IMG/VR virus record: IMGVR_UViG_3300038309_000241
Coordinates: 1-25,765 of that record
DNA: 25,765 nt
Strand: one strand, 5' to 3'
DNA from: a virus
The notes below the pieces were generated by a model that did not search any database, was not told the origin of the DNA, and was given only the letters and a program-made list of their open reading frames with translations. The position numbers and the translations under genes were made by a program. Positions 1,262 to 6,695 of this stretch are shown piece by piece (position 1 is the first letter of the stretch; every line of letters begins with the position of its first letter).

Positions 1262-2043
1262 TATGCCACCTCCGCCAGGGCAAGTTCAGGACAAAAATAT
1301 ATAATTGTAGCGCTGTAAATTGAACCGATTGCCTGCGATAAATACCCGCTGGCTGAAACAGGATTTTCTGATATCTCTCCGGCCGAATCACCTGACACAT
1401 ATAATATTTTTTTCGTTCCGTCTGTTATCCAGGCCCATGAATCATCACGAACATAACCGTGCGTCATTACCAAGCAGGAAGCATTCTGATCGGCTGCGGA
1501 CAATGTCAAAGCTGCCCCAGGCATGGTTGCCAGGGCATCAGCTTTGGCCTTTTTCCATGACTGGTCAGATGGGTCCAGATACACGACATCATGCACAGCC
1601 ACAGTCTCACCGACTGTCACTGTTTGAGTCAGCCCTGAATAATCCAAATCGTCCACTATCTGAGCGGCGGAAATAACGCCATATGCACCGGTAAGAGGCG
1701 CTGCCAGGGATCCGTCGGCATAAGTGTCAGGATCAATCTTGAGATGAAGCACATCTACCACACGGCCGTCCGGATAATCGGTATCATATATAATCAACTC
1801 ACAGTTTTCGTCATCACCGGCGGTAAAATCCAGCATGCCGATATCGACAATAAGTTTCCCTAACGCTGCCAGGGAAGCCCAATCAAATGAGCTGGAGTGC
1901 GCATCGCTGTCGGCATACGCACCCATGCATTTCAACCGACAGCGCGCTATAGACGCCATTTCCTCAGCTGTATACGCTCTGCCGTCAATGCCTCTGATCT
2001 TGTGTGCAAACGGAGAATTCCGCCCCTTATAAACGGTAATCAT
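1261..2043 (-). CDS. Tail-associated protein with C-terminal decoration-like beta domain
   Basis: A 260-residue protein. The start is the ATG at 2043, which overlaps the fibre gene's stop as TAATG; the frame is open for 38 codons upstream, but that stretch lies inside the fibre gene. Roughly the first 95 residues form an alpha/beta domain (MITVYKGRNSPFAHKIRG, then IIYDTDYPDGRVVDVLHL). From about residue 125 to the end there is a beta-rich domain with VGETVAVHDVVYL, LVMTHGYVRDDSWAW and IYFCPELALAEVA. Its layout resembles the small beta-barrel domain of capsid decoration proteins, which also appears on some tail proteins. I infer a distal tail or fibre accessory role. Confidence 0.78.
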   Translation of the reverse strand: MITVYKGRNSPFAHKIRGIDGRAYTAEEMASIARCRLKCMGAYADSDAHSSSFDWASLAALGKLIVDIGMLDFTAGDDENCELIIYDTDYPDGRVVDVLHLKIDPDTYADGSLAAPLTGAYGVISAAQIVDDLDYSGLTQTVTVGETVAVHDVVYLDPSDQSWKKAKADALATMPGAALTLSAADQNASCLVMTHGYVRDDSWAWITDGTKKILYVSGDSAGEISENPVSASGYLSQAIGSIYSATIIYFCPELALAEVA

Positions 2044-2882
2044 TATGCCCACCCATTTGTTAATGTGAAGTAATAATTGGTTCCGTCGAAATAAATTTCC
2101 AAAATATCGATCGCACCAGCAGATGTTGAAAATGTTCCAGCCACGCCTCCCTCCCATTTCCCAGAAGGCAGGGTCGGAATTCGGCTTCCGGTACCGTCCT
2201 GTATAACCCTCAGCTGCAATTTCCCGACAACAGGATTGGCGAATGTCAGGGTAACACTATCGCCCAGTGTGGCAGACTGGTAATTCCCATTTGCCCAATC
2301 GATTTCCGTGTTTGTCGAGACCGAGCCGTTTGAATATTCGGATGAAAACCCGATTTTTGTTATGCCGGTCACAATGCCGCCGGTAATATTCACATTGCTG
2401 GCATCCTGGCTGGCCATGCTGCCCAGCTCTCCAATCTCAAGAGACGTGTTTACCCACACAGCCGCCCCTTCGGTGGCGTCAACGCACCGGAATGCCTCAC
2501 GGGGAGTAGATGACGTGTTTATCCATACAGATCCGACGGCATACCCATCGCCGCTGTCATCGTCCACCGTGGGATCAGCCGTGGCTGAAAAATTGTGCTT
2601 TAAAAATGCCTGGACATCTACCCCGATCTCAACCCCCAGGTTCTGACGAGCCGTGGCCGCGTCAGAGGCCCCTGTGCCGCCATCGGCCACGGCCAGGTCG
2701 GCAATACCAGCAATAATGCCGCCGGAAATATCGACGTTGTCAGAATTCTGATTGGCGATCGTTCCTGGACGCCACTTTTTTGTTACCCATCCGCCGGCGC
2801 CATCATTCCAGGAGACTTCGACATAATCCAGTCCTGTTACAGATAGTAACTCTGATACAATTTCTGAGATTTTTTTGGCCAT
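2043..2882 (-). CDS. Tail fibre protein
   Basis: A 279-residue protein. ATG at 2882 is chosen over GTG at 2885 because AGGAGG lies 5 nt before the ATG. The N-terminal part (MAKKISEIVSELLSVTGLDY) probably joins it to the tail. A motif then occurs twice, around residues 42-63 (NVDISGGIIAGI) and 156-177 (NVNITGGIVTGI), as is common in fibre shafts. ADGGTGASDAATARQNLG (66-83) and GYAVGSVWINTSS (113-125) are common fibre modules. The C-terminus (about 205-279) is a beta domain ending in TNYYFTLTNGWA, probably a tip or trimerisation unit. It follows the tip protein gene by 12 bp. Confidence 0.88.
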   Translation of the reverse strand: MAKKISEIVSELLSVTGLDYVEVSWNDGAGGWVTKKWRPGTIANQNSDNVDISGGIIAGIADLAVADGGTGASDAATARQNLGVEIGVDVQAFLKHNFSATADPTVDDDSGDGYAVGSVWINTSSTPREAFRCVDATEGAAVWVNTSLEIGELGSMASQDASNVNITGGIVTGITKIGFSSEYSNGSVSTNTEIDWANGNYQSATLGDSVTLTFANPVVGKLQLRVIQDGTGSRIPTLPSGKWEGGVAGTFSTSAGAIDILEIYFDGTNYYFTLTNGWA

Positions 2883-2894
2883 CACGACCTCCTA

Positions 2895-5800
2895 TCAACT
2901 GATATAATATAATGGAAGCACCAATCGCGTACGGTTATAATAAATCTGTTTCAGCTGCTCTGCGCATGCGATTGCGGACTCGCTGGCTGTGGCATTCCTT
3001 AGCCCGGAAATCTCGATCATATCTATTGTCGGATTTTGCGACCAATTTCTGTTCCCGGAACTCAACGCCGTCCGTAACCCGCATAATACGTCGTCGACAT
3101 TTGTCAGTCCACAGGCACCGGCATAAAAAGACACGATATTATAACAATCCTCAGTGCCTGTGATAGTTGGTATCGTTTGTGTCTGTGCTACCCCCGCATT
3201 GCAATTAAAATACCGCAATTGAGTTTGCCCCGACAAGTCAAACCCATGCTGAATATTACAGCAGTGTTGTGGCTGAGCCGTTCCTGCTGGGGCGCATGAA
3301 AAATATTCCAATAAACCAACACCCAAATCTATCGATGTAATGGGGTTTCCGGCCACGTCAAGATACGTTAATGGCATTCCGGCCGTGTCGATCACAGATA
3401 AAAAACAATCACGTGCTATTAACACTGTAAGCAACAATCCGTCCATGTTCAGGGCCGTCATATTGTTATTGTGAAATAAATTCAACTCTTTCAGGTTGAC
3501 AGCCGGAGATGCATCTAATTGAGTTATTAAATGAGCCCACGTCAACGATAGCTTTGTCAATGATTCCGGACAATTTGTTAAATAAAACTCTGTGATTATC
3601 GATGCGTAATACATATGCAGTTCTTCGAGATTAACCAGATTCTCAAAGTTTATGCCGGTGTAAAATGCGTCTGATGTCACAATTTTTCTAAATGTAGCAG
3701 CTATTGGGTCCAAAGTATTACCAGCATGTCCTCTTAATCCAAAGCCGCTGACATCTAAACCGATCACATGGCCGTTTTCGATCTCAACCCCAAGCCATTC
3801 TGACACAGGTTTGGCTGACAACCAATTATGGTTTGGCTTTGTCCATTGGTTACCGCCGGTGGCATAGAAAAATGCGATAAGAGCATCTTTTTCGAATTTA
3901 GGCACCACATCGGCTGCAGACGTCACGAATTTTTGCAGTGTCGACCAGCCAGTAAATCCGATATCTGTGATATATTGCACTCTGGCATAATAAATGGTGT
4001 CATCAGCCAAAACACCGTCTTGCACAACAACATTCGTCAGATTTGATTCATCTGATAATGATTGCCATACCGCCGGGCTGTGAAAATAATCATCTGATAT
4101 CTGCCAGTTTGTAGCCAGGTGAGTGGCCGGGATAGCGGATTCAAGATCGGTCGCTACCATGACGACGCTTTCTTTTCCGACTGATTCGCCGTATGCCGGT
4201 ATAATAATAGATGGTGTTGTTAGATTGTCGTTACCGACCGGCCCGTCCGTCTCGATAATTCTATATTCAGTCCCGTCTTCAATTACTCTTAATTCGCCAT
4301 TCTCAGTTTCCCGATATTCAGCTCTGGCATATAAAACCGTCCGCGATTGAGTTTGCCATGATTCCACTCCGTCCCGGACACTAAATAAATAGATATCTAT
4401 TTCACCGTCATAGTTAATATCAGACCATGACACAAACAGCTCTTCGTCCGGTATACCGGTGCATTCATACAATAAAGATCCGTCAGCATGTCTGTTAATC
4501 TGTACGGTATAACTTGTGCCTTCCTCCGGCCCGACACTAACATCATCTTCGGTATCATATATGTCAATTTCGACTTGTTTCCTGTTCCTGTGGCGCCATT
4601 CGATCAATATATCGCCGACAATTTCCGCCCCTATTTCACCGGCATTATTATTAATGCGTAACCGTGCCGGCGGATAAGGTCGGCCCGGCCGAGCTGCCAG
4701 AGTAATACTATTTTCGATCGCATCAGCGATATTCAACGTTCCCAGAGATGTCGTGGGTAGCAGCTTGCCGTAAATGGTCACTCCAATCGTATTCTGCCAC
4801 CCGCAAATCGCACAATCCTCGGAGACCATGTATAAAATGGCCCCGGCGTCGTGAGCCGCCGGTACTGTATCCAGGCATCCACGGCCGACACCGATGGTGT
4901 CAGTACCAATGTCGTCTATCCTGACGACCTCAGCGCCGATGATGCCCCATGATCCGATCAAAACATCAGCGTCATAATCCCATGAAACATTAAACGACGT
5001 GTCAGTAATACCCACACCGGACGCCAAAATTGCATACGGCATAAAACTGGTGGTCCCGATCTGGCCGTATCCGTTACCGGCGTTAAACCATGCCTGGGCA
5101 TCAAAGGCATCACTACTCGGTTCTGATCCAGACAGGCACGCAAAACCGGCGTCGCTTGGCAGCGCTCCCAGATCTGCATTGGCCAGCCCGGTTCGTAATA
5201 AATGATAGGGAGCCTCAAACATGATTCGCAATGGGCAATTTGCCGGCTCATGAATGGGATCTTCCCACTCGCTGGTCGGTAAATCAGAATATATTGCATC
5301 GTCTATACCATACACATCTTCGACGCATTCGACCCTGATACCGCTTTCATCGTTCAGCCCGGAAAAGTCCATCGCCGTGACTCGCATGACAGATTCGTCA
5401 ACCCCATATCGCGGCCAGGATAAAACAAAGGCATCACCGACATTAAGTGCCGATCCATCCAAATTTGTATATATTACCGCATCGGCTAATGGATTCGACA
5501 TGGCGCGCAAATCACGAGACGCCACAAATGCAGCTAGTTCCAAGTTCGCAATGCCGGCGTAATCGATTTCTTCGGAAACAGTTCCGCCCATCGAGGCAAT
5601 GAGGGCCGTATCGTAAACAGTATAAGAGCTGTCCTCACGATTTTCACGATCCCAGAATTTTACGGTAACCGTATTAATGATATCGTCCGTTGTACGCCTT
5701 CTGAATCGCTCGACCTTTATAATATTAGACTCATCAAATACAGGTAGTGATTCTACATCATAGTCATCTCGTATTAGCTTTAATGTAAACAAACCAAATT

Positions 5801-6695
5801 GCCGGTCTATATATAACGACCCATCAATATGTTTCAGGACTTCACGTATAAAGGTTTCTACTGTGCTGCCGTGGTCCCATAAAATTGACAACCCGAAACC
5901 TTCATTATACAAAATGTCAGCGGCGGACTCGAAAGAATCTTTATCTATATCTTTTTCAGGGTATCCCATACCCCACTTTTTATCTGTTAAAACATCATAA
6001 ATAATATGTGCTGGATTACAATCGCTTCCTATTAACGATCTCGGTGAGTACCATTTAGATGGTATATGCCGTGAAAAGAACGACCAGTTTTTCAAATATG
6101 GCGATGTACCCAGGTAAACCTGTTTTAGAATTATGCAGCATACGCCGCGAAATGCCGGCATGTTAGGCCCGATTGCTGAAACTAGGTAAGCGTTCTGTGT
6201 TTGCGTATCCAACCCCATTTCCACATCCACATCACCGGATATACCGCCGTCACTTTTTTCGCCGCCGAATAGCTCCTCCTGGTCGATTGTAATGGTTCCT
6301 CCGGTGCAAGATCCGGCCCACAGCTCTTTTGTACCATCAACAAATATGGCGGTAATGGCATCAATTTCATGTGCCAACACCATGTGGATCCCGAGATAAT
6401 ATTTATACCCGACAGTAACGCGTTTGGTGCCCATCAGAAAACCGCCGTCCACTTTTTCCTTGACAGGCTTCGTCTTAAAATCACCGTACCAGACCACATT
6501 TGGACCTTTTAATTCTTTAGTGCCAAATAATACAGGTATGGCCCGGCCGACCTGTGCCGTCGGCACTTGAAACTGATCAAGACCCGCCGGGCCCCGTCCG
6601 TCAGGCGTATCGGTACTCGGCCGCAAGGCATAAGCAATGGCCAGGCTGAGCGCCACTTTCGCTACTACCCACAGTGCAGTTACCCACCAAACCAT
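2895..6695 (-). CDS. J-like tail tip/host-specificity protein with C-terminal leucine-rich repeats
   Basis: A 1266-residue protein. Residues 3-24 are hydrophobic. Residues 50-77 (GRAIPVLFGT, then GPNVVWYGDF) are the N-terminal signature of lambda J/GTA-type tip proteins. The block near residues 330-430 (IINTVTVKFWDRENRED and the MSNPLADAVIYTNLDG region) fits the Phage-tail_3 (PF13550) core. Fibronectin-III-like segments follow, one at about 826-928. Residues 937-1266 form a leucine-rich-repeat domain: a cap with ALIAFFYATGGNQW and NWLS, then repeats beginning at about 1023, 1046, 1068, 1089, 1109, 1129 and 1160. The start is 7 nt after the previous stop with no strong ribosome binding site, so it is coupled. 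Known relatives sit at the tail tip and bind receptors; the repeat domain is the likely receptor binder. Confidence 0.92.
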   Translation of the reverse strand: MVWWVTALWVVAKVALSLAIAYALRPSTDTPDGRGPAGLDQFQVPTAQVGRAIPVLFGTKELKGPNVVWYGDFKTKPVKEKVDGGFLMGTKRVTVGYKYYLGIHMVLAHEIDAITAIFVDGTKELWAGSCTGGTITIDQEELFGGEKSDGGISGDVDVEMGLDTQTQNAYLVSAIGPNMPAFRGVCCIILKQVYLGTSPYLKNWSFFSRHIPSKWYSPRSLIGSDCNPAHIIYDVLTDKKWGMGYPEKDIDKDSFESAADILYNEGFGLSILWDHGSTVETFIREVLKHIDGSLYIDRQFGLFTLKLIRDDYDVESLPVFDESNIIKVERFRRRTTDDIINTVTVKFWDRENREDSSYTVYDTALIASMGGTVSEEIDYAGIANLELAAFVASRDLRAMSNPLADAVIYTNLDGSALNVGDAFVLSWPRYGVDESVMRVTAMDFSGLNDESGIRVECVEDVYGIDDAIYSDLPTSEWEDPIHEPANCPLRIMFEAPYHLLRTGLANADLGALPSDAGFACLSGSEPSSDAFDAQAWFNAGNGYGQIGTTSFMPYAILASGVGITDTSFNVSWDYDADVLIGSWGIIGAEVVRIDDIGTDTIGVGRGCLDTVPAAHDAGAILYMVSEDCAICGWQNTIGVTIYGKLLPTTSLGTLNIADAIENSITLAARPGRPYPPARLRINNNAGEIGAEIVGDILIEWRHRNRKQVEIDIYDTEDDVSVGPEEGTSYTVQINRHADGSLLYECTGIPDEELFVSWSDINYDGEIDIYLFSVRDGVESWQTQSRTVLYARAEYRETENGELRVIEDGTEYRIIETDGPVGNDNLTTPSIIIPAYGESVGKESVVMVATDLESAIPATHLATNWQISDDYFHSPAVWQSLSDESNLTNVVVQDGVLADDTIYYARVQYITDIGFTGWSTLQKFVTSAADVVPKFEKDALIAFFYATGGNQWTKPNHNWLSAKPVSEWLGVEIENGHVIGLDVSGFGLRGHAGNTLDPIAATFRKIVTSDAFYTGINFENLVNLEELHMYYASIITEFYLTNCPESLTKLSLTWAHLITQLDASPAVNLKELNLFHNNNMTALNMDGLLLTVLIARDCFLSVIDTAGMPLTYLDVAGNPITSIDLGVGLLEYFSCAPAGTAQPQHCCNIQHGFDLSGQTQLRYFNCNAGVAQTQTIPTITGTEDCYNIVSFYAGACGLTNVDDVLCGLRTALSSGNRNWSQNPTIDMIEISGLRNATASESAIACAEQLKQIYYNRTRLVLPLYYIS

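What the first reader, a model, noticed from the sequence alone, without database searches (positions are those of the whole stretch)
2898..3887. Leucine-rich-repeat domain fused to a phage J-like tail tip protein
The last 330 residues (about 937-1266) of the tip protein begin with a cap (ALIAFFYATGGNQW, NWLS, WLGVEIENGHVIGLDVSGFG) of the type that starts bacterial and plant leucine-rich repeats. At least six repeats of 20-23 residues follow (LxxL starts near 1023, 1046, 1068, 1089, 1109, 1129), then a longer Cys-rich one at about 1160. Repeat domains of this kind usually bind proteins. I know of no well-described phage tip with this fusion. It occupies the position where host-specificity domains sit, so it may be a new receptor-binding module, perhaps captured from a host surface protein.
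Basis: partly seen in the sequence, partly recalled or inferred. Interest (0 to 1): 0.72.

Follow-up and report, generated by a model that had tools for sequence, protein, structure and literature searches.

The report
Leucine-rich-repeat module on phage tail tip
A phage of the Pseudomonas/Sphingomonas/Erythrobacter-phage type carries, welded to the very end of its tail-tip protein, a horseshoe-like protein-binding module that other phages encode as separate proteins, which suggests that phages pass this module around to touch their hosts' surfaces.

Summary
Residues 931-1266 of the 1266-aa J-like tip protein (window 2898-3905, minus strand) form a capped leucine-rich-repeat (LRR) domain. A cap HMM built only from other phages hits at 59.5 bits (best of 1000 shuffles 7.4). 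A chain of six 20-23-residue repeats occurs in 0 of 5000 shuffles. An AlphaFold2 model is a solenoid (pLDDT about 70-95 over residues 926-1135) that aligns to LRR structures with Z up to 21. The last ~100 residues are poorly modelled. In the nearest relatives J stops where the window continues, and the same kind of next gene follows 3-12 nt later, so a ~110-residue linker plus the LRR sits exactly at the J C-terminus. None of the 80 nearest related contigs has it. It is better read as a circulating phage module, ultimately kin to bacterial (Bacteroidota-type) surface LRRs. The J fusion was found only here. The most likely role is host-surface binding at the tip, which is inferred and untested.

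The parts
2895..6695 (-). J-like tail tip / baseplate hub protein, 1266 aa
   Evidence: ORF; phrog_1101 tail protein E 8.8e-265, Pfam Phage-tail_3 above cutoff
4248..6695 (-). Conserved J core (residues 1-~816); relatives' J proteins end here with '...EYRIIE' or similar
   Evidence: 38-47% identity to the nearest phage and viral-contig J proteins; C-termini compared
3906..4247 (-). Linker of ~114 residues (817-930), Fn3-like by eye only; weak matches to phage tail-fibre/hypothetical proteins
   Evidence: tblastn E 9e-3 to Prochlorococcus phage P-HM1, 1e-2 to a Melvirus tail fibre; no Pfam match
3720..3905 (-). LRR N-terminal cap (residues 931-992)
   Evidence: HMM of phage caps built without the window: 59.5 bits, E 1e-17; best shuffle 7.4 bits
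3291..3719 (-). LRR repeats (residues 993-1135), parallel strands every 20-23 residues
   Evidence: repeat-chain test 0/5000; AF2 model pLDDT about 70-93 here; LRR fold matches
2898..3290 (-). C-terminal part (residues 1136-1266): one or two longer Cys-containing repeats, then an unresolved end
   Evidence: pLDDT mostly low; C-cap HMM from phage modules does not score above shuffles
2043..2885 (-). Next gene, tail-fibre-like, ATG at 2882; an orthologue directly follows J in relatives without the LRR
   Evidence: 51-60% identity to L007, start 12 nt after J in both; weak phrog tail-fibre hits

Best explanation
The tip protein is a normal J-like hub with an accessory receptor-contact module at its C-terminus: a ~110-residue linker and a capped LRR solenoid. 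The J core builds the distal end of the tail; the linker holds the LRR beyond it; the LRR's concave face probably binds a host-surface molecule, most likely a protein. The module belongs to a phage-circulating family of capped LRR proteins that are usually separate genes, and it was joined to J by recombination exactly at the J stop codon. Shown: the LRR fold (by sequence and prediction), the fusion, the empty site in relatives, the phage kin. Inferred: exposure on the virion, ligand binding, direction of the gain, and effect on host range.
For: LRR domain confirmed by sequence and model. Empty site: in L007, L011, L004, L005 and L050 J ends at the core and the next gene starts 3-12 nt later; in the window the orthologous gene follows the extended J by 12 nt. 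J C-termini in this group vary, with long extensions in some relatives. The C-terminal region of lambda J is essential for receptor binding (stated in PMC12312913). Phage LRR kin: L095/L096, L098, L099, L179, L181, L182, L183, L185 and L187, several on contigs with portal, terminase, tape-measure or minor-tail genes, one followed by a CBM5/12 protein. Cap tree: all 11 phage caps plus two Coprenecus rows in one group, 98/92; the phage label needs 2 changes against a shuffled mean of 10.2.
Against: No ligand, virion or host-range data. The next gene looks like a tail fibre, so primary recognition may lie there. No second J-LRR fusion was found, so persistence under selection is not shown. The tree rests on ~100 columns and the window has a long branch (2.29). 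The window's C-terminal end does not match the other phage modules' end. The contig is a virus fragment of unknown host.
Confidence: 0.66

Rival explanations
1. Recent capture from a host surface protein: the phage took the LRR from its bacterial host's own LRR surface protein and uses it for mimicry or self-type adhesion.
For: The cap is widespread in bacterial LRR proteins (231 confirmed stretches in genome contigs; 48 of 395 and 35 of 395 sampled genomes of two phyla). The second-best cap match and the highest phmmer score is a Bacteroidota protein, Coprenecus L100.
Against: Nearest caps by tree path are from phages. Window identity to any cap is at most about 41% over the 95-100 aligned columns, so nothing recent is visible. 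GC of the LRR part (0.436) is near that of the core (0.476). The isolate phages with a related J infect mostly Proteobacteria, not Rikenellaceae.
Confidence: 0.13
2. Decoration: the LRR adds weak, non-specific stickiness (like Ig-like decorations) and the downstream tail fibre does the specific recognition.
For: A separate fibre-like gene follows J. In L187 the LRR gene is followed by a carbohydrate-binding CBM5/12 protein, fitting a general adhesion cluster.
Against: Position at the end of J, the part used for receptor contact in lambda (PMC12312913).
Confidence: 0.17
3. Assembly chimera joining a J gene to an unrelated LRR gene.
For: Only one contig has this fusion, and it is a virus record without isolate.
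Against: The frame is open through core, linker and LRR, and synteny resumes with the expected next gene 12 nt after the stop.
Confidence: 0.04

Closest known systems
J-like tail proteins of phrog_1101 (Nipunavirus/Queuovirinae, Mesyanzhinovviridae, Erythrobacter and Sphingomonas phages)
   Same: Core residues 1-~816, gene order, next gene
   Different: Relatives mostly end at the core; the window adds linker + LRR. In the annotated relatives the first ~77 residues are a separate gene.
Stand-alone phage capped-LRR proteins found here (L095, L098, L099, L179, L183, L187 and others; phrog_7816 for some)
   Same: N-cap, 'GHV..LDL..N.L.GAAG.TL'-like start, LRR repeats
   Different: Separate genes rather than fused to J; several have a 'GTNAAPS' end module that the window does not detectably share.
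Bacterial capped LRR proteins (Bacteroidota, Chloroflexota, Gemmatimonadota; e.g. Coprenecus L100 with peptidase M64 and BACON domains)
   Same: N-cap and LRR repeats
   Different: Cellular multi-domain proteins; no tail core.
Listeria internalins and plant LRR receptor ectodomains (PDB: InlJ, InlF, FLS2)
   Same: LRR solenoid fold (VIA Z about 17-21)
   Different: 14-20% identity, fold level only; no shared function shown.
Synechococcus phage S-CBWM1 gp93 'putative tail protein'
   Same: A phage tail-region protein with BspA/DUF285-type repeats
   Different: PKD + BspA-type repeats, no detectable homology to the window domain.

Membership tests
J-like tail tip protein (phrog_1101) | Full-length core match | tested here: met
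   E 8.8e-265 over residues 9-835
J-like tail tip protein (phrog_1101) | Position between tail assembly genes and tail-fibre gene | tested here: met
   Upstream phrog_778 and phrog_1082 genes, downstream orthologue of relatives' next gene
Leucine-rich repeat domain | Tandem LxxLxL repeats of 20-29 residues | tested here: met
   Chain of six, 0/5000 shuffles; LRR_4 29.1 bits vs cutoff 27 on the domain alone
Leucine-rich repeat domain | Solenoid fold | tested here: met
   AF2 model pLDDT about 70-95 for 926-1135, LRR matches; prediction only
Phage capped-LRR module | N-cap | tested here: met
   59.5 bits, tree group 98/92
Phage capped-LRR module | 'GTNAAPS' C-terminal end module | tested here: not met
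   C-cap HMM gives the window -2 to -3 bits, below the best shuffles; the window is kin by cap and repeats only, not a full member of that architecture
Receptor-binding protein | Binds host receptor / decides host range | not testable with these tools
   No experiment; inferred from position
Internalin family | Secreted surface protein with internalin cap and Ig-like inter-repeat region | not tested
   Only fold-level similarity to InlJ/InlF

The most novel reading that the evidence does not exclude
Tailed phages share a so far undescribed, mobile capped-LRR adhesion module that moves between stand-alone genes and the J tip itself, giving some phages an LRR-based, probably protein-recognising, receptor-contact device.
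Probability: 0.4. Interest if true: 0.65.

Novelty: new variant of a known kind. Interest (0 to 1): 0.5.

Why it matters
Phage tip specificity is usually ascribed to beta-rich, Ig/Fn3, lectin-like or trimeric fibre domains (general knowledge). An LRR, a fold known for easily re-targeted protein binding, at the J C-terminus would be a new class of tip recognition module. The empty-site relatives make the gain directly testable.

Tried and rejected
Single-sequence AF2 of residues 820-1266 was useless (pLDDT 33). Direct tblastn/pattern searches with the whole domain found no phage kin; kin appeared only through cap alignments. By eye the window's last 70 residues resemble the 'VD..L / GTNAAP' end of other phage modules, but the HMM test does not support it, so this was dropped. 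S-CBWM1 gp93 was considered as a homologue and rejected. Most Listeria LRR hits in the phage collection come from short unannotated records that look like host fragments and were not used. A repeat scan found no long repeat of the kind a diversity-generating element would leave. Literature searches found no paper on LRR domains in phage tips; only open-licence papers are held. Plasmid search gave only two weak hits. The viral pattern scans are exact-residue scans of low sensitivity, so 'no other J-LRR fusion' is a statement about what they could see.

Full report
What was checked. The finding points to the last 330 residues of a tip protein. The ORF is window 2895-6695, minus strand, 1266 aa. 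The window itself is a 25,765-base virus record with no host genome. Its gene order (terminase, portal, protease, major head protein, neck proteins, tape measure, tail proteins, J) is that of a tailed phage with a tape-measure-built tail.

The core. Residues 9-835 match phrog_1101 (E 8.8e-265), and Pfam Phage-tail_3 is above its cutoff. 752 phage records have a related core, the nearest at about 40-45% identity: Xanthomonas, Pseudomonas, Stenotrophomonas, Erythrobacter and Sphingomonas phages.

The LRR. Scanned alone, residues 936-1266 pass Pfam's LRR_4 cutoff (29.1 vs 27 bits); in the whole protein they do not (19.6). An HMM of ten caps from other phages, window excluded, hits residues 931-992 at 59.5 bits; the best of 1000 shuffles reaches 7.4. 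A chain of six repeats spaced 19-24 residues is seen in no shuffle of 5000; the tiles of J that lie wholly in the core give chains of one. The AF2 model, with 13 sequences, has mean pLDDT 70, about 70-95 over residues 926-1135, and low confidence over most of the rest beyond ~1168. Foldseek's best hits are LRR proteins and VIA-align gives Z 21.1 to the FLS2 ectodomain (rmsd 5.1, 285 aligned). Matches in the viral structure library are mainly giant-virus and poxvirus LRR proteins; those to phage proteins are weak (E 5e-3 to 4e-2).

The fusion point. In relatives without the extension (L007, L011, L004, L005, L050) J ends at the core ('...EYRIIEN', '...LRVLEA' and similar) and the next gene starts 3-12 nt later. 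In the window 'EYRIIE' is followed by ~450 more residues, and then by a gene that is 51-60% identical to L007's next gene, again 12 nt after J. So linker and LRR were gained at, or lost from, the exact C-terminus; gain is favoured because none of the 80 nearest related viral contigs has an LRR there. A few of these have other long C-terminal extensions.

The kin. Scans with cap alignments found the same capped LRR in viral contigs L095/L096 (two LRR domains in one 464-aa protein, directly after a fibre-like gene), L098 and L179 (LRR + further repeats), L099, L181, L182, L183, L185 and L187. Phage hallmark genes lie on the same contigs: portal in L098, L099 and L181; terminase in L099 and L185; tape measure in L187; minor tail protein in L183. 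In L187 the following gene encodes a CBM5/12 protein. Bacterial proteins of many phyla share the cap. Among 209 caps the window's best BLAST hit is phage L099, then Coprenecus L100, then phage L098. In the first tree four phage caps including the window's group at 98/88. In the second, all eleven phage caps plus the two Coprenecus rows group at 98/92, and the phage label needs 2 changes against a shuffled mean of 10.2; one phage clade is not rejected (p-AU 0.28). Caveats: about 100 columns, a long window branch, and a sample fetched with patterns partly built from the window.

Mechanism. In lambda-like phages J forms the distal tail end and its C-terminal region is needed for receptor binding (general knowledge; PMC12312913). 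By position the LRR would sit at or beyond that end. LRRs bind mostly proteins (general knowledge). The simplest account is an extra or replacement receptor-contact module. Exposure, ligand and effect on host range are not shown. A decoration role is the main rival, and direct capture from a host is less likely than transfer among phages.

Novelty. J-like tips and LRR domains are both well known. The fusion appears undescribed in the papers that could be searched, and so does the phage-circulating LRR module; hence 'new variant of a known kind'.

Noticed in passing
window 6450-6695 (J residues 1-82): The first ~82 residues of this J correspond to a separate 77-aa gene (phrog_1180) in annotated relatives, and the 67-aa gene that lies between it and J there is missing here.
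   Followed up: partly
L004 6454-9201; L005 6430-8982: Erythrobacter phage R6L and Sphingomonas phage Lucius J proteins carry different large inserts at the same site of the core; R6L's looks like a VWA domain by eye.
   Followed up: no
L020, L021, L022, L024, L028; L083: J proteins with ~520-residue C-terminal extensions, and L083 with a LamG-like end by eye: J C-termini look like a general site of domain gain in this group.
   Followed up: no
L090 5182-6192: Synechococcus phage S-CBWM1 gp93 'putative tail protein' is a PKD + DUF285/BspA-type repeat protein.
   Followed up: partly
L100, L101: Gut Bacteroidota (Coprenecus) LRR proteins nest among phage caps in the tree, hinting at exchange between phages and Bacteroidota.
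   Followed up: partly
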